NCBI GenBank assembly: GCA_902802265.1
Contig: CADCLN010000024.1
Location: 1-41,764 of the forward strand
DNA from: an uncultured Bacteroidales bacterium
GTDB taxonomy: Bacteria > Bacteroidota > Bacteroidia > Bacteroidales > Bacteroidaceae
Length of the DNA stretch: 41,764 bases
Reading direction: 5' to 3'
Shown: positions 35,655 to 41,764 of the stretch, piece by piece
Numbering within the stretch: position 1 is the stretch's first letter
How the letters are laid out: each line of letters begins with the position of its first letter
The notes under the pieces: generated by a model
What the model was told of the DNA's origin: nothing
Databases searched by the model: none
The model's input: the letters and a program-made list of their open reading frames with translations, nothing else
Translations under genes and position numbers: made by a program

Positions 35655-36983
35655 ATGAACAATCCAAATGTAAAGCCTGCAGAAGGCAAGCTTGGCATCA
35701 TGGTCGTGGGACTGGGTGCCGTGACTTCTACATTTATGACAGGCGTGCTCATGGCACGCAAAGGACTGGCAAAGCCCGTAGGCTCCATGACCCAGTATGA
35801 CAAAATCCGTGTAGGAAAAGGCGCAGCAAAGAAATACCTTTCATACAGCGACATTGTCCCTATCGCAAAACTTGACGACATCGTGTTCGGAGCCTGGGAC
35901 GTCTATCCTGCCAACGCATTCCAGAGTGCCATGTACGCTCAGGTGCTCAACGAGAAAGACATTCTGCCCGTCAAGGACGAGCTGGAGAAGATTGTCCCCT
36001 TCAAGGCAGCCTTCGACAAAAACTTTGCCAAGCGTCTCGACGGCGACAACGTCAAGCAGTGCGCCACCCGTTGGGACATGGTTGAAGCCCTCCGTGAAGA
36101 CATCCGCCAATTCAAGGCAGAAACTGGCTGCTCACGCATCGTAGTCGCATGGGCCGCATCCACCGAAATCTACGTGGAGCCCAACATGGCAGTACACGAC
36201 ACTCAGGCACACCTCGAAGCAGCCATGAAGGCCAACGACACCGTCAACATCGCCCCCTCCATGTGCTATGCCTACGCTGCATTGGCAGAAGGCGCACCCT
36301 TCATCATGGGCGCACCCAACACCACCGTTGACATCCCCGCCATGTGGGAAATGTCCGAGCGGCTGGGCCTCCCCATCGCCGGCAAAGACTTCAAGACAGG
36401 TCAGACCCTTGTCAAGTCAGGCTTTGCACCCATCATCGGCACACGCTGTCTCGGGCTCAGCGGCTGGTTCTCCACCAACATCCTCGGCAACCGCGACGGA
36501 CTGGTGCTCGACGAACCCGCCAACTTCCGCACCAAGGAAGTCAGCAAACTCTCTACGCTTGAAACCATCCTCAAGCCCGAGGCACAGCCCGACCTCTATG
36601 GTCACGGCAACGACGCCGACGACCAGTACTACCACAAAGTGCGCATCAACTACTACCCGCCGCGCAACGACAACAAGGAAGGCTGGGACAACCTCGACAT
36701 ATTCGGCTGGATGAACTATCCCATGCAGATCAAGATAAACTTCCTCTGCCGCGACTCCATCCTTGCCGCACCCCTCTTGCTCGACCTCTGCCTGCTCAGC
36801 GACCTTGCAGCCCGTGCCGGTCGCAGCGGCACACAGCGCTTCCTCAGCTTCTTCCTCAAAGCCCCCATGCACGACTACACAAAGGGTGAAGAACCCGTCA
36901 ACCACCTCTTCCAGCAATACACCATGCTGAAGAACGCCATTCGCGAAATGGGAGGCTACGAAGCCGACGAAGAAATCGACTAA
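35655..36983 (+). CDS. ino1: Inositol-3-phosphate synthase
   Basis: A 442-residue NAD-dependent enzyme converting glucose-6-phosphate to myo-inositol-3-phosphate, the first step towards inositol lipids in Bacteroidetes. The Rossmann motif is VVGLGAVTST near residue 18. TRWDMVEALREDI near 137, VVAWAASTEIYVEP near 160 and KINFLCRDSILAAPLLLDL near 360 (active-site Lys and Asp region) are family blocks. In Bacteroides the gene clusters with phosphatidylinositol-phosphate synthase genes, but here none is adjacent and the gene has its own promoter. Composition is strongly C-rich on the + strand. Length and motifs are complete. Confidence 0.93.
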   Translation: MNNPNVKPAEGKLGIMVVGLGAVTSTFMTGVLMARKGLAKPVGSMTQYDKIRVGKGAAKKYLSYSDIVPIAKLDDIVFGAWDVYPANAFQSAMYAQVLNEKDILPVKDELEKIVPFKAAFDKNFAKRLDGDNVKQCATRWDMVEALREDIRQFKAETGCSRIVVAWAASTEIYVEPNMAVHDTQAHLEAAMKANDTVNIAPSMCYAYAALAEGAPFIMGAPNTTVDIPAMWEMSERLGLPIAGKDFKTGQTLVKSGFAPIIGTRCLGLSGWFSTNILGNRDGLVLDEPANFRTKEVSKLSTLETILKPEAQPDLYGHGNDADDQYYHKVRINYYPPRNDNKEGWDNLDIFGWMNYPMQIKINFLCRDSILAAPLLLDLCLLSDLAARAGRSGTQRFLSFFLKAPMHDYTKGEEPVNHLFQQYTMLKNAIREMGGYEADEEID

Positions 36984-37290: not shown

Positions 37291-37338
37291 AGAAAGTAGA
37301 GTAAAGTGGCGTTTGTTAGAAAAAAGTTGTAATTTCCG

Positions 37339-37370
37339 TGCAGTCTTTTTGGAAAAGTGGTATCTATGTC
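37339..37370 (+). promoter_or_regulatory. Candidate ECF promoter motif A (sigma-barrel gene)
   Basis: TGCAGTCTTTT (37339-37349) and GTGGTATCTAT (37357-37367) match the arrangement TGCAGTCTTTT (39100-39110) and GTGGCATCTAT (39119-39129) before the methyltransferase. The two halves start 18 and 19 nt apart. The motif ends 25 nt before the ATG. It differs from the TAnnTTTG type, so it is a candidate autoregulated ECF promoter. A CTTTTT/AAAAAG inverted repeat (37345-37350, 37380-37385) is also present. Confidence 0.55.
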
Positions 37371-37391
37371 AGTAGAGGCAAAAAGTTTTCG

Positions 37392-39080
37392 ATGGATATA
37401 GAACAACTTATAGAGCAAGGGAGACAAGGCGACGAGACTGCACTTGGAAGCCTGTATAAGGCATATCACCGACAAATGACGGGGATATGCCAACGCATCA
37501 CAGGCAATCGTCAAGTGGCAGAGGAATTAGCACATGATGCATTTCTGCTAGCCTTTGCCAAGATGAATCAATTGCACGACCCTAGGCGCTTTGAGGCATG
37601 GCTGACAAGCATCACAACCCATGTGGCCCGACGCTATGTGCAGCGGCATCACGACCCTGCCATGCTCTCACTCTCCACGTTCTCAGAAGAAGAACTTCCT
37701 GGGGAACCTGTTCCAGCAGACGACAAACCGCTGCCAACGATGGCTGAACTGATGGCAGCTGTAGATGCGCTTCCCAAAGGCTATGGACAAGTGTTCAAGT
37801 TGGCGGTCATACAAGATATGTCGCATAAGGAAATAGCCGAAATTCTTGGAATCGCTGCTCACTCTTCATCATCACAACTGTCAAGGGCAAAGAAGATGTT
37901 GCAGAAGTCACTTGCCCAGTATTGGTTGTTGTGGCTCCTACTGCTTCTGTTGCCTTTGGCCATCTATCTTTACAAAACGAAAAGGACTATTGAAGCACCA
38001 GGGCCAGTAGTAACAAAACAAGAGCATACCACGCCTGACACAAAGCATGATGACGAAGAAACTCCAGTGATAGATCAAGGAACCCCAACCATTCCAATTA
38101 TTACTCCACAGCAGATAGCCATTGTTCCTGTCAAAGTTGTTTTAGCAGACAGTCTTGCTCCTGCAGACACGCTCCATCATACAGGCGAAGATATAGAGTG
38201 CACCGACACGACAAGCATTATACATGACAACAAGCTAGTGCCCGACTTGCGTCCTGACAAAGACACTCATATTGCCGACCTGTTCCCAGAAAAGCCGATA
38301 GATGCAGCGAACAAGGGGCAAAAGTGGTCAGTAGAATTGGCATACACAGGCAGCATGGGTGATCAGAATGCCAACCGCCCGTTTATATTCACCGCGACGG
38401 AGATGACAGATGTAACAAGCGATGTTCCGCCAATCCGCTCTTTCGATAAATGGAGCGACTATGCTGAAGCTTTGCAAAGTGGGACACTTGATGTCGATTA
38501 CAAGACGTATCAAATCTTGTTGAAGATTGCCCAGAACAACGCTGCTCAGCCTGGTACGGACATGATTGAGCGTAATACTCACCATTACATGCCTATCACT
38601 TTCTCCTTGGCATTGAAGTATAAACTGAATAACCGTTTTGGTATAGAGACAGGCTTGAGCTACAGCCGTTTGAAATCAGAGTCCGAAATAGGCACAGGTG
38701 GAAATGCCATCCATGAGCAGCAGATCATTCATTACCTTGGTATTCCGCTGAAGGGCTCCTATAATATATATAATGTTAAGCGATGGAGTCTCTACGGAAG
38801 TCTTGGCGTGAAGTTGGAAGTACCCACCAGTGCATCGTTCAGTACCAGCTATATTGTAAACGGGCGCGTAGAACTCTCCGAACCCTCCAGACTCCAAGTT
38901 CCGCTGCAGTGGTCAGTTGGCACAGGCCTTGGCTTGCAATTCAACATCACGCCTCATGTCGGTTTCTTTGCCGAACCAAGCCTGCAATACTACATCCCGA
39001 CGGGCAGCAGCATAGAAACCTATCGCACGGAGCACCCGTTCACGTTCTCCTTGCCGATAGGAATCCGTATAACATGGTAA
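37392..39080 (+). CDS. ECF sigma factor fused to transmembrane helix and outer-membrane beta-barrel
   Basis: A single 562-residue frame with an unusual architecture. Residues ~8-88 are sigma-70 region 2 (ALGSLYKAYHRQMTGICQRI, then AEELAHDAFLLAFAKM and FEAWLTSITTHVARRY). Residues ~117-172 are region 4 with a helix-turn-helix (MSHKEIAEILGIAAHSSSSQ). One membrane helix follows directly (177-194, WLLWLLLLLLPLAIYLY). Residues 195-310 are a Pro/Thr/Asp-rich, probably disordered periplasmic linker. Residues ~311-562 show alternating beta strands of an outer-membrane barrel (WSVELAYTGSM, FGIETGLSYSRL, WSVGTGLGLQFNI) and end in Trp, as OM proteins do. No anti-sigma domain separates region 4 from the helix, so a read-through of two adjacent genes is unlikely. 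An in-frame GTG at 37338 lies inside the promoter-like motif; the ATG at 37392 (MDIEQLIEQG) is the sigma-like start. Reminiscent of dual-membrane-spanning anti-sigma proteins of Bacteroides, but with the sigma factor itself in the chain. Confidence 0.88.
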   Translation: MDIEQLIEQGRQGDETALGSLYKAYHRQMTGICQRITGNRQVAEELAHDAFLLAFAKMNQLHDPRRFEAWLTSITTHVARRYVQRHHDPAMLSLSTFSEEELPGEPVPADDKPLPTMAELMAAVDALPKGYGQVFKLAVIQDMSHKEIAEILGIAAHSSSSQLSRAKKMLQKSLAQYWLLWLLLLLLPLAIYLYKTKRTIEAPGPVVTKQEHTTPDTKHDDEETPVIDQGTPTIPIITPQQIAIVPVKVVLADSLAPADTLHHTGEDIECTDTTSIIHDNKLVPDLRPDKDTHIADLFPEKPIDAANKGQKWSVELAYTGSMGDQNANRPFIFTATEMTDVTSDVPPIRSFDKWSDYAEALQSGTLDVDYKTYQILLKIAQNNAAQPGTDMIERNTHHYMPITFSLALKYKLNNRFGIETGLSYSRLKSESEIGTGGNAIHEQQIIHYLGIPLKGSYNIYNVKRWSLYGSLGVKLEVPTSASFSTSYIVNGRVELSEPSRLQVPLQWSVGTGLGLQFNITPHVGFFAEPSLQYYIPTGSSIETYRTEHPFTFSLPIGIRITW

Positions 39081-39099: not shown

Positions 39100-39158
39100 T
39101 GCAGTCTTTTCTTGTCTTGTGGCATCTATCCTCATAGAGAAACAAAACAAGAAAAGAC
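39100..39158 (+). promoter_or_regulatory. Candidate ECF promoter motif B and 17-bp inverted repeat
   Basis: TGCAGTCTTTT (39100-39110) and GTGGCATCTAT (39119-39129) repeat the motif found before the sigma-barrel gene. An inverted repeat with one mismatch, GTCTTTTCTTGTCTTGT (39104-39120) and ACAAAACAAGAAAAGAC (39142-39158), encloses the putative -10 part and ends 1 nt before the methyltransferase ATG. If the start site is downstream of ATCTAT, only the right arm is transcribed, which favours a DNA-level operator over an RNA hairpin. Confidence 0.55.
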
Positions 39159-39159
39159 A

Positions 39160-39957
39160 ATGCAACAACGACATCAGGATCGCAAACAATACTTTTATGA
39201 ATTGGCAAATACAGCCCGCGAGTTCTACTTAAACTATCTGCAGCCACACATTACCTTGTCGCCAAACACCCGTGTTCTGGAAATAGGTTGTGGCGAGGGC
39301 GGCAACTTGCTTCCCTTCGCGGAACAGGGCTGTAAAGTAACGGGGATTGACATCTGTAAGGAACGTATCAATGAAGCACAGACTTTCTTTACGGAATGCC
39401 ATCAGCAGGGCACATTCATCTGTCAGGACTTTCTCCTTTCAGGAAATCCAAAGACGGAGGATGAACGATACGACCTTGTACTTGTTCACGATGTAATAGA
39501 ACACATCGAACCAAATTATAAACGAGGCTTTCTTCTTCATATAAAGTCATTTCTCAAACATAACGGTATTGCTTTCTTTGGTTTTCCTGCCTGGCAGAAC
39601 CCATTTGGTGGTCATCAGCAAATAAGCGCGGGTCTTGCCTCCAAACTTCCATTTATTCATTTGCTGCCAAAGCCGCTCTACAAAGCCCTGTTGAAGACAG
39701 GCGGAGCCACGGCAAGCAGCATGGACGAACTGATGAGCATACGAGCCTCGCGGATGACTGTAGAGGGCTTTGAACGACTGATTTCCGAAGTCGGTTATAC
39801 CATTTGTCAGCGCACCCTTTGGTTCATCAACCCACACTACAAACAGAAGTTCCATATAAATCCTCGCCGCCAGTGGACTTTCTTTGCCAGTATTCCATAT
39901 CTACGTAACTTCTATACTACATCAGCGTGGTATTTACTTCGTCAAACTCAAAAATAA
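39160..39957 (+). CDS. Class I SAM-dependent methyltransferase
   Basis: A 265-residue cytoplasmic methyltransferase with a UbiG-like Rossmann core. Motif I is VLEIGCGEGGNL (about residues 41-52), the acidic loop GIDICKERI follows near 64-72, and DLVLVHDVIEHI near residue 110 is motif IV. The C-terminal ~100 residues (from FGFPAWQNPFGGHQQ) differ from ubiquinone enzymes and may bind the substrate; no substrate can be named. The ATG at 39160 is chosen because upstream in-frame codons lie in the inverted repeat. It is 7 nt upstream of the CotH gene at 39965, so the two are co-transcribed. It shares an upstream motif with the sigma-barrel gene, suggesting control by that protein. Confidence 0.88.
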   Translation: MQQRHQDRKQYFYELANTAREFYLNYLQPHITLSPNTRVLEIGCGEGGNLLPFAEQGCKVTGIDICKERINEAQTFFTECHQQGTFICQDFLLSGNPKTEDERYDLVLVHDVIEHIEPNYKRGFLLHIKSFLKHNGIAFFGFPAWQNPFGGHQQISAGLASKLPFIHLLPKPLYKALLKTGGATASSMDELMSIRASRMTVEGFERLISEVGYTICQRTLWFINPHYKQKFHINPRRQWTFFASIPYLRNFYTTSAWYLLRQTQK

Positions 39958-39964
39958 TCAAAAG

Positions 39965-41764
39965 ATGAAAAGACTATTTTGCGTTACCTCAGTTTTCACA
40001 CTGGTTTTGGGGTTGAATGCACAAAACGCTCTGTTATTCACGGAAGTTTGTGTCGCGAACATCGACCAAACGATTGATTACTCGAACAACTATGGCGGTT
40101 GGGTTGAGTTATACAATCCGACTGCAACAGACGTTTCGTTGGATGGGTGGTATCTAAGTGATGATGTCACGAATCTGGCGAAACATCGTCTGTCAGGCTA
40201 TGGCATGTTGAAGTCCGGATGCTATCAGTGCATTTTCTTCGACCATAACGCAGCCGATGGTGAATATGGATCCGATGCAACAAAGCAAGTGAGATTCAAA
40301 CTAAACAGAAAAGGTGGCACGCTGTATCTGTCAAGAAATGGCAGGGAGGTGGACCTGTCCATATCTTATCCTGTATCTGTTCCACGTTGCAGCTATGCGA
40401 GAGTAAATTTAGAGGCTGACGTATGGCAGTATTGTGGCATCCCTACTCCAGGCAGAGCCAATGCGGGGCACTATGCGCAGGAATGCCTACCGATACCGGA
40501 GGTTGATTGTGAATCCAAACTATTCACTTCTGGTTTCGACGTACATGTACAGATTCCTTCTGGCACGACTCTCCGCTACACGACAGACGGTAGCACTCCG
40601 ACACTCACAAATGGAAGTACAAGCACAGATGGTCTTTTCCCTGTCTCAAAGACCACAGTATTGCGTCTGCGGTTGTTCTCTGAAGACAAACTCCCAAGCG
40701 GCGTGGTCACACGTACATATATATACAAGGACAAGAACTACTATTTGCCTATCGTAGCTGTCACAACAGACCCACGCAATCTCTACGACAACATGATTGG
40801 CTGTTATGTAGACGGCAAGAACGGTGTACTGGGACGTGGCTCAACGGGAAAGTCCAACCTTAACATGGACTGGGTGCGTCCTGTCAACTTTGAATATCTG
40901 ACGGCAGACAGCAAAATGGTCATCAATCAGGAAACGAGTTTTGAAGTGGCTGGCGGTTGGAGCCGCCATTTCAAGCCTGCATCGTTCAAACTTACAGCCA
41001 AGAAACTGTATGACAGCAACGGACATTTCCCCCAATCCCCTTTTGCCGCCAAGCCATACTGCGAGTATCAGCAATTGATGATTCGCAACGGAGGAAACAA
41101 CAATAGAATGGATGGCGGCTCTCGTATCAAGGATGCTATTACCCAGCAGGTGCTGACGACCAGTGGCTTCTATGTGGATGCACAGGAGTATCAGCCTGTC
41201 CATGTTTTCATCAACGGCAAGTATTTGGCCATGATGAATGTACGCGAGCCAAGTAACCGTTTCCACGGTGCGGCCAACTACGGCTACGACGATGACGAGA
41301 TGGACTCATTTGAATATAGTAGTCATCTCTACCATCAAAATAGCGGCACGCGCGAAGCGTTTGACCGCATGATACAACTTTCGTATCATGCTGATACCGA
41401 TGAAGGCTTTGAACGTGTTCGGGATCTTTTAGACACGGATGAATTTGCCCGATATATGGCAACGGTCTGCTATGCAGGCACCAGTGACTGGGTGCTGAAC
41501 GACAACAATGTAAAGGGCTATCGCTCGCAGGATGACGGGAAATTCCACTTCGTGTTCTTCGACATGGACTTGACATGGGAAAATACGAATAACGTGGAAG
41601 ATCTGGATGCCAATGACATCATCTATCTCTACCGCAATCTGAAGCAGAACAAGGCTTTCCGCAAGCAGTTTGTGGCGGCATACTGCATTCTGCATGGCAG
41701 CATATATACACAGGAGAGATGCCAACATATTGCTGACAGTATATGTGCATTAGTGAAGAACGCC
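39965..41764 (+). CDS. CotH-kinase surface protein, second copy (partial, runs off window)
   Basis: An open frame of 600 codons with no stop before the end of the window; the 3' end is missing. Signal peptide 1-19 (ends LGLNA). A lamin-tail domain (about 22-145, LFTEVCVANID..GGWVELYNP) is followed by a chitobiase-like domain (about 180-255, LRYTTDGSTPTLT) and a CotH kinase-like domain (about 258 to the end). CotH blocks include MIRNGGNNN, YQPVHVFINGKYLAMMNVREP and DGKFHFVFFDMD with Asp533 and Asp535. The corresponding residues in the first CotH protein are Asp527 and Asp529; here the following FAFG is replaced by LTWE. The architecture is the same as in the 21766 gene, so they are paralogues. 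Second lamin-tail and dockerin parts would be expected downstream. Confidence 0.88.
   Translation, partial: MKRLFCVTSVFTLVLGLNAQNALLFTEVCVANIDQTIDYSNNYGGWVELYNPTATDVSLDGWYLSDDVTNLAKHRLSGYGMLKSGCYQCIFFDHNAADGEYGSDATKQVRFKLNRKGGTLYLSRNGREVDLSISYPVSVPRCSYARVNLEADVWQYCGIPTPGRANAGHYAQECLPIPEVDCESKLFTSGFDVHVQIPSGTTLRYTTDGSTPTLTNGSTSTDGLFPVSKTTVLRLRLFSEDKLPSGVVTRTYIYKDKNYYLPIVAVTTDPRNLYDNMIGCYVDGKNGVLGRGSTGKSNLNMDWVRPVNFEYLTADSKMVINQETSFEVAGGWSRHFKPASFKLTAKKLYDSNGHFPQSPFAAKPYCEYQQLMIRNGGNNNRMDGGSRIKDAITQQVLTTSGFYVDAQEYQPVHVFINGKYLAMMNVREPSNRFHGAANYGYDDDEMDSFEYSSHLYHQNSGTREAFDRMIQLSYHADTDEGFERVRDLLDTDEFARYMATVCYAGTSDWVLNDNNVKGYRSQDDGKFHFVFFDMDLTWENTNNVEDLDANDIIYLYRNLKQNKAFRKQFVAAYCILHGSIYTQERCQHIADSICALVKNA

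What the first reader, a model, noticed from the sequence alone, without database searches (positions are those of the whole stretch)
37392..39080. A sigma factor built into a protein predicted to span both membranes
One continuous frame encodes sigma regions 2 and 4, then at once a transmembrane helix, a ~115-residue disordered linker and an outer-membrane-type beta-barrel ending in Trp. In Bacteroides, dual-membrane-spanning anti-sigma proteins (Dma type) with a separate ECF sigma partner are known. Here the sigma domain itself replaces the anti-sigma domain, and no separate anti-sigma gene is seen nearby. A barrel defect or ligand could be signalled directly to a tethered sigma factor, perhaps by proteolytic release. 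Sigma, helix and barrel motifs are seen; topology and mechanism are inferred.
Basis: partly seen in the sequence, partly recalled or inferred. Interest (0 to 1): 0.92.

Follow-up and report, generated by a model that had tools for sequence, protein, structure and literature searches.

The report
Sigma factor fused to membrane-spanning barrel
In a Prevotella-like bacterium one protein joins a gene-switching sigma factor to a tether and an outer-membrane barrel, so a change at the cell surface could reach promoters through a single molecule; the layout was already reported for Dma3 of a gut Bacteroides, and here it appears as one of many such genes, flanked by its own pair of promoters and without the usual anti-sigma part.

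Summary
In detail: 37392-39080 encodes ECF sigma regions 2 and 4, a transmembrane helix, a disordered linker of about 115 residues and a barrel ending in Trp. It is real: the genome has a second copy, and 88 fused frames collected here group apart from 30 two-gene relatives. The layout is not new: PMC13088901 says Dma3 of B. thetaiotaomicron carries its sigma domain at the N-terminus.

Added here: (1) no room and no profile match for the ~45-residue anti-sigma segment that opens two-gene Dma proteins (0 of 95 fused frames reach 5 bits; 14 of 19 held-out two-gene proteins do). (2) In the model one helix runs from the sigma-4 recognition helix into the membrane. (3) The gene lies between two copies of an ECF-type promoter, TGCAGTCTTT-N13/14-ATCTAT; the second precedes a methyltransferase/LTD-CotH operon. 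An exact search finds this pattern only at these two places in the genome. Across relatives the -10 part varies but tends to match between the two promoters of one locus.

Best reading: a self-contained surface-to-promoter switch, held off by its tether and probably released by proteolysis when barrel or envelope is disturbed. Topology, release and signal are inferred.

The parts
37339..37367 (+). Promoter-like motif 1, TGCAGTCTTT-N13-ATCTAT, just upstream of the fused gene (autoregulation, inferred)
   Evidence: nine-base motif upstream in 70 of 84 fused loci with enough sequence
37392..39080 (+). Fused gene: sigma - TM - linker - outer-membrane barrel, 562 aa
37452..37649 (+). Sigma region 2 (residues 21-86)
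   Evidence: Pfam PF04542, E 1.4e-10
37746..37901 (+). Sigma region 4 (residues 119-170)
   Evidence: Pfam PF08281, E 8.9e-13
37920..37976 (+). Transmembrane helix (about residues 177-195), in the models continuous with the last sigma-4 helix (160-197 or 156-198)
   Evidence: hydropathy peak 1.95
37980..38312 (+). Disordered linker (residues 197-307), presumed periplasmic
   Evidence: pLDDT under 50; dN/dS 0.30-0.35
38322..39077 (+). C-terminal outer-membrane beta-barrel (residues 311-562), last residue Trp
   Evidence: Pfam PF13568, AlphaFold2, Foldseek, split-Dma profile E 9.4e-58
39100..39129 (+). Promoter-like motif 2, TGCAGTCTTT-N14-ATCTAT, starting 19 bases after the stop codon
   Evidence: nine-base motif downstream in 60 of 83 fused loci with enough sequence
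39160..39957 (+). Class I SAM-dependent methyltransferase, first gene of the presumed target operon
   Evidence: Pfam Methyltransf_23 E 1.8e-15; same family beside 29 of 88 fused loci
39965..41764 (+). LTD-CotH protein with a signal-peptide-like start (by eye), running off the window, 7 bases after the methyltransferase
   Evidence: Pfam CotH 2.1e-18, LTD 1.7e-9; start read; same family beside 5 of 88 fused loci

Best explanation
It is a Dma3-type tethered ECF sigma factor: one chain whose barrel sits in the outer membrane, whose linker crosses the periplasm, whose single helix crosses the inner membrane and whose sigma domain faces the cytoplasm. Shown by sequence: the order of domains, no anti-sigma segment between sigma and membrane, one common clade, and two promoter-like motifs, its own and that of the downstream methyltransferase/LTD-CotH operon. 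Inferred: the tether itself keeps the sigma off, because the sigma-4 DNA-recognition helix runs straight into the membrane; disturbance or failed assembly of the barrel leads to cleavage in the periplasm and then in the membrane, probably by the site-2 protease that the genome has; the freed sigma fires its own promoter and that of the operon, and newly made full-length protein re-tethers fresh sigma and resets the switch.
For: Domains. Anti-sigma profile: 0 of 95 fused frames reach 5 bits, against 14 of 19 held-out two-gene proteins; in the fused form the TM run starts within a few residues of the sigma end. One clade: 88 fused plus 5 broken fused genes against 30 two-gene loci, local support 0.999 (sigma, joint) and 0.81 (barrel). 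One helix 156-198, block pLDDT 51-73. Mean net charge +4.0 before and +0.9 after the TM run. Proline inside the TM run in 25 of 37 fused and 2 of 21 two-gene representatives. PF02163 protease present. Motif in 86 fused loci: 70 forward, 0 reverse in 20.9 kb upstream; 60, 0 in 25.8 kb downstream; 3, 0 in 137 kb of gene; 18, 2 in 473 kb of farther flank. Strict pattern twice in the genome, both here, reversed control 0. -10 match within a locus: 7.24 shared bases against 5.19 +/- 0.34, 0 of 2000 shuffles reaching it. A two-gene relative answers envelope stress, including the BamA inhibitor bacteroidetocin A (PMC9308784 and PMC13114119, passages).
Against: No experiment. The anti-sigma profile misses 5 of 19 held-out two-gene proteins (4 under 2.5 bits, 1 scored only at a wrong place), so absence rests mainly on there being no room before the TM run. 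AlphaFold2 alignments are shallow (21, 20 rows) and sigma-4 confidence is low. Hydropathy reaches the usual 1.6 in 67 of 88 fused proteins only, and the window's linker has a second stretch at 1.59 that could be a membrane segment. Proline and charge compare two clades, not independent events. Both motifs are present in 49 of 81 testable loci, neither in 5. The paralogue of the same genome has two promoters whose -10 parts hardly match (3 bases). The genome scan was exact-match. No conserved cleavage site was seen. In B. thetaiotaomicron dma3 deletion did not reverse the hypervesiculation of dma1 and dma2 mutants (PMC13088901), so the signal is unknown.
Confidence: 0.58

Rival explanations
1. 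The sigma domain works while still tethered, as the membrane-bound activators CadC and ToxR do (recalled), the barrel altering it through the linker.
For: No cleavage site conserved in the linker; strong purifying selection on the sigma domain.
Against: The recognition helix is modelled as continuous with the TM helix, leaving little room for RNA polymerase; a disordered linker of about 115 residues passes on conformational change poorly.
Confidence: 0.2
2. A separate anti-sigma protein, or an unrecognised anti-sigma segment in linker or barrel, holds the sigma domain, and the tether only localises it.
For: The anti-sigma profile is not fully sensitive (14 of 19 held-out proteins at 5 bits or more); the assembly is 85.65% complete; sigma-TM fusions of another kind exist (L130, L132, L137).
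Against: No cytoplasmic segment between sigma and TM; no split Dma protein found in the genome; none of the recurrent neighbour families that were annotated is an anti-sigma.
Confidence: 0.17
3. The fusion is a decayed two-gene operon whose sigma part is permanently locked and without function.
For: Five relatives carry a stop or frame break.
Against: 88 fused frames, dN/dS about 0.1 in the sigma part, and promoters that co-vary within loci.
Confidence: 0.04

Closest known systems
Dma3 of Bacteroides thetaiotaomicron (dma3 locus BT_2778-2779)
   Same: Said to carry its cognate sigma domain at the N-terminus, to lack an adjacent ECF21 gene and to belong to the dual membrane-spanning Dma family (PMC13088901, sections and passages); BT_2778 is listed as a sigma-70 family factor (PMC10434189, passages)
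Two-gene systems Dma1/Das1, Dma2/Das2, EcfO/Reo
   Same: Two-gene loci fetched here have homologous sigma and barrel domains, TM helix and long linker; 11 of 30 have a TGCAGT upstream motif. That these loci are relatives of the named systems is inferred from the described layout
   Different: Two genes, overlapping or close; the second gene opens with an anti-sigma segment; downstream motif in 1 of 30 two-gene loci (29 with enough sequence) against 60 of 83 fused loci
IutY of Pseudomonas putida (ECF243)
   Same: Sigma factor fused to a membrane-bound part and freed by Prc and RseP (PMC8999054, passages)
   Different: IutY contains its anti-sigma factor; here no such segment is found and the barrel is part of the same chain
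ECF48, ECF52, ECF53
   Same: Sigma domain with a C-terminal fusion that includes TM helices, expected to be regulated by proteolysis (PMC8999054, passages)
   Different: They carry a zinc-finger anti-sigma domain; no such Pfam match here, and here a barrel follows

Membership tests
Dma (dual membrane-spanning anti-sigma) family | N-terminal anti-sigma domain | tested here: not met
   0 of 95 fused frames reach 5 bits (14 of 19 held-out two-gene proteins do); no room between sigma and TM
Dma (dual membrane-spanning anti-sigma) family | Transmembrane helix | tested here: met
   Predicted: hydropathy and charge, helix 156-198
Dma (dual membrane-spanning anti-sigma) family | Long disordered tether | tested here: met
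   pLDDT under 50 at 197-307; median 118 residues from TM end to barrel profile start
Dma (dual membrane-spanning anti-sigma) family | C-terminal beta-barrel homologous to that of two-gene Dma-like proteins | tested here: met
   Profile of 15 two-gene proteins, E 9.4e-58
Dma (dual membrane-spanning anti-sigma) family | Cognate ECF21 sigma gene next door | tested here: not met
   The homologous sigma domain is fused; no other sigma match on this contig
Dma (dual membrane-spanning anti-sigma) family | Inhibits a sigma factor | not testable with these tools
   Needs experiment
Dma3 type | Cognate sigma domain at the N-terminus, no adjacent sigma gene | tested here: met
Dma3 type | Orthology to Dma3 itself | not testable with these tools
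ECF21 sigma group | Match to the ECF21 group model | not testable with these tools
   No ECF-group library; indirect support from homology to the sigma genes of two-gene loci
IutY-type sigma/anti-sigma fusion | FecR-like anti-sigma part | tested here: not met
   No such Pfam match at E up to 1

The most novel reading that the evidence does not exclude
A class of outer-membrane-to-promoter signalling carried by a single protein without any anti-sigma domain: tethering by a helix continuous with the DNA-recognition helix is the only brake, release is by intramembrane proteolysis, and each locus is a self-contained cassette whose two promoters have co-evolved with its own sigma, so that paralogues in one cell stay insulated.
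Probability: 0.43. Interest if true: 0.8.

Novelty: new member of a known kind. Interest (0 to 1): 0.6.

Why it matters
Very little is said to be known about Dma3 (PMC13088901). If the reading is right, these loci come with their targets marked: two promoters, a short operon and a one-protein path from the cell surface to transcription. That makes the signal, the release step and promoter choice directly testable, and offers ready-made insulated switches for commensal gut bacteria.

Tried and rejected
Frameshift or assembly artefact: rejected. Chance barrel: rejected. Wider regulon in this genome: of 15 exact TGCAGTCTTT sites (reversed control 4), two flank this gene and one precedes the paralogue; of the other 12, ten lie inside an open frame on the motif's strand and by eye none has the -10 at the expected distance. 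Weaker sites were not sought. Myo-inositol-phosphate synthase upstream (35655-36983) as partner: not among the 25 commonest neighbour families printed. L130, L132 and L137, which by eye looked like sigma-anti-sigma-TM fusions, do not match that profile (0.2 bits at most). In one search, L014 and L030 were mis-picked and four linker values (-40 to 52) are out of line; at least one of 37 segments was mis-picked; none was removed. One search prints only the best rows, so the three families with fused genes are a floor. Papers not held: 10.1073/pnas.2321910121 = PMC10927553, PMC3536166, 10.1093/nar/gkaa1229. Paper searches; none listed a description of the promoter pair or of the missing anti-sigma domain, in a library of open papers only.

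Full report
OBSERVATION. The window is one whole contig of an unnamed 2.88 Mb assembly; the nearest named records are MAGs of Prevotella and relatives, many from ruminant guts. The frame 37392-39080 encodes 562 residues. Pfam places sigma region 2 at 21-86, region 4 at 119-170 and an outer-membrane barrel at 399-534. AlphaFold2 on 21 rows gives a barrel at 312-561 (block pLDDT 67-92), a disordered linker at 197-307 and helices in the N-terminal part; mean pLDDT 63.8, pTM 0.43. Foldseek lists outer-membrane barrels, the best being Legionella porins, OmpT and OmpA, and lower down SigW.

A FAMILY. A second fused gene in the same genome is 49% identical end to end. Of 301 genomes of the same family, 183 have a match at 1e-10, many only to separate sigma or barrel genes. 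Of 295 genomes of the order, 274 have a match at 1e-15, again mostly to separate genes; among the rows printed, near full-length fused matches fall in families f1, f5 and f101. From 148 loci I took 88 fused frames (exact duplicates removed, near duplicates kept) and 35 loci with adjacent sigma and barrel frames. Five of the 35 (L032, L083, L104, L139, L143) fall in the fused clade and lack the anti-sigma segment, so I take them as broken fused genes; L083, with a four-base overlap, could also be a natural re-split. The other 30 are two-gene loci. Fused and broken fused genes together make one side of the tree: local support 0.999 on joint and sigma trees, 0.81 on the barrel tree. The trees are unrooted; that the fused form is derived is inferred from the wider spread of the two-gene form.

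THE MISSING PART. Two-gene proteins open with about 45 residues before their TM helix. A profile of that segment, built from 11 of them, reaches 5 bits at the right place in 14 of 19 held-out two-gene proteins and in 0 of 95 fused frames. The profile is thus not fully sensitive; the stronger argument is that fused proteins have no such stretch: in 87 of 88 the TM run, as picked by the script, starts within seven residues of the sigma profile's end. In the model of residues 1-215 the last sigma-4 helix and the TM helix are one, 156-198, block pLDDT 51-73. Mean net charge is +4.0 in the 12 residues before and +0.9 in the 12 after the TM run; TM end to barrel profile start has a median of 118 residues (5-95%: 99-155) in 88 fused and 174 in 30 two-gene proteins, enough to cross a periplasm. 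Against: the hydropathy peak is at least 1.6 in 67 of 88 (window: 1.95), and the window's linker has a second stretch at 1.59; no linker reaches 1.6. Proline lies inside the TM run in 25 of 37 fused and 2 of 21 two-gene representatives. Helix-breaking residues favour site-2 proteases (recalled); the genome has a PF02163 protease. The contrast is between two clades and only suggestive.

THE PROMOTER PAIR. Upstream regions of fused genes share TGCAGTCTTT, followed by ATCTAT or a variant. In the window the pattern lies at 37339-37367, before the fused gene, and at 39100-39129, 19 bases after its stop and before the methyltransferase at 39160. In 86 fused loci TGCAGT[CA][TCA]TT occurs 70 times forward and 0 reverse in 20.9 kb upstream, 60 and 0 in 25.8 kb downstream (last 60 bases of the gene included), 3 and 0 in 137 kb of gene, 18 and 2 in 473 kb of farther flank. 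By locus: upstream 70 of 84, downstream 60 of 83, both 49 of 81, neither 5 of 81; in 30 two-gene loci upstream 11, downstream 1 (29 with enough sequence), mostly with a CATTTA-like -10. In the window's genome TGCAGTCTTTN{12,15}ATCT occurs twice, both here, reversed control 0. In 30 genomes chosen because they had matches to the fused gene, TGCAGTCTTTN{11,16}ATCTA gives 43 matches in 23 genomes and 0 for the reversed control. By my count against, 37 of the 43 lie close to an end of a fused gene; of the other six, one precedes a sigma gene cut by a stop (G232:C105), one an LTD-CotH gene of the same locus (G060), one another copy of the methyltransferase (G259:C14), one lies about 375 bases before a frame of that methyltransferase family (G071:C219), and two are in coding frames.

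CO-VARIATION. The -35 part is constant, the -10 part differs between loci (TATCTAT, GGACTATA, CTCCTTT, TATCATAT). Of 51 loci with both motifs, 21 with sigma domains under 75% identical were kept; the two promoters of one locus share on average a run of 7.24 bases around the -10, against 5.19 +/- 0.34 when downstream copies are shuffled, 0 of 2000 shuffles reaching it. Relatedness is reduced, not removed, and some loci do not fit: the paralogue L002 shares only 3 bases between its two promoters, L060 only 4. The two fused genes of this genome have different -10 parts. The simplest reading is that each sigma reads its own promoters.

THE OPERON. The next gene is a class I methyltransferase. The same family lies beside 29 of 88 fused loci, a radical SAM/SPASM gene beside 29, a Gfo/Idh/MocA gene beside 19, a small predicted lipoprotein beside 17, an LTD-CotH gene beside 5; flanks differ in length, so these are floors, and only one member of each was annotated. 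In the window the LTD-CotH gene starts 7 bases after the methyltransferase. What these enzymes act on is unknown; surface modification is a guess.

MECHANISM. A two-gene relative answers envelope stress: in Phocaeicola vulgatus its sigma gene rises 33-fold under the toxin BcpT (PMC9308784, passages), and ecfO-reo were the most induced genes under BcpT or Bd-A, with Reo described as spanning all compartments (PMC13114119, passages). Without an anti-sigma domain the simplest brake is the tether itself; the precedent for release is IutY, cut by Prc and RseP (PMC8999054, passages). Shown: anatomy, clade, motifs. Inferred: topology, signal, cleavage, reset.

PRIOR WORK. PMC13088901 (abstract, introduction, one results section, discussion, passages; [quoted passage not shown] PMC10434189 lists BT2778 as a sigma-70 factor with a value of 2.3 in its iron tables (passages). 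The layout is thus known; none of the nine paper searches (named under Tried and rejected) listed the promoter pair or the missing anti-sigma segment.

VERDICT. A well supported new member of a known, hardly studied kind, with a strong and testable regulatory cassette. Interest 0.6.

Noticed in passing
L130, L132, L137 (genomes G429, G492, G327): Sigma factors with a C-terminal extension that holds a hydrophobic stretch but no barrel. By eye an anti-sigma-like segment precedes it; the profile does not support that (0.2 bits at most).
   Followed up: partly
L002 (G000:C5:66821-68485): Second fused gene of the same genome, followed by radical SAM/SPASM and Gfo/Idh/MocA genes, with another -10 type.
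   Followed up: partly
L032, L083, L104, L139, L143: Fused-clade loci broken by a stop or frame change at different places, in L143 between the sigma part and the TM helix; error, decay or natural re-split not resolved.
   Followed up: no
window 37338-37391: A gene caller may start this gene at GTG 37338 in the promoter motif; many relatives give a false N-terminus reading MQSF for the same reason.
   Followed up: yes
window 39965-41764: LTD-CotH protein behind the methyltransferase, running off the contig; in G060 such a gene has its own copy of the motif.
   Followed up: partly
window 35655-36983: Myo-inositol-1-phosphate synthase upstream of the cassette; not among the 25 commonest neighbour families.
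   Followed up: partly
L025:838-1482 (-) and L073:1641-2282 (-): Small lipoprotein-like proteins (by eye) without a Pfam match over cut-off; the L025 type is beside 17 fused loci, the L073 type beside 7.
   Followed up: no
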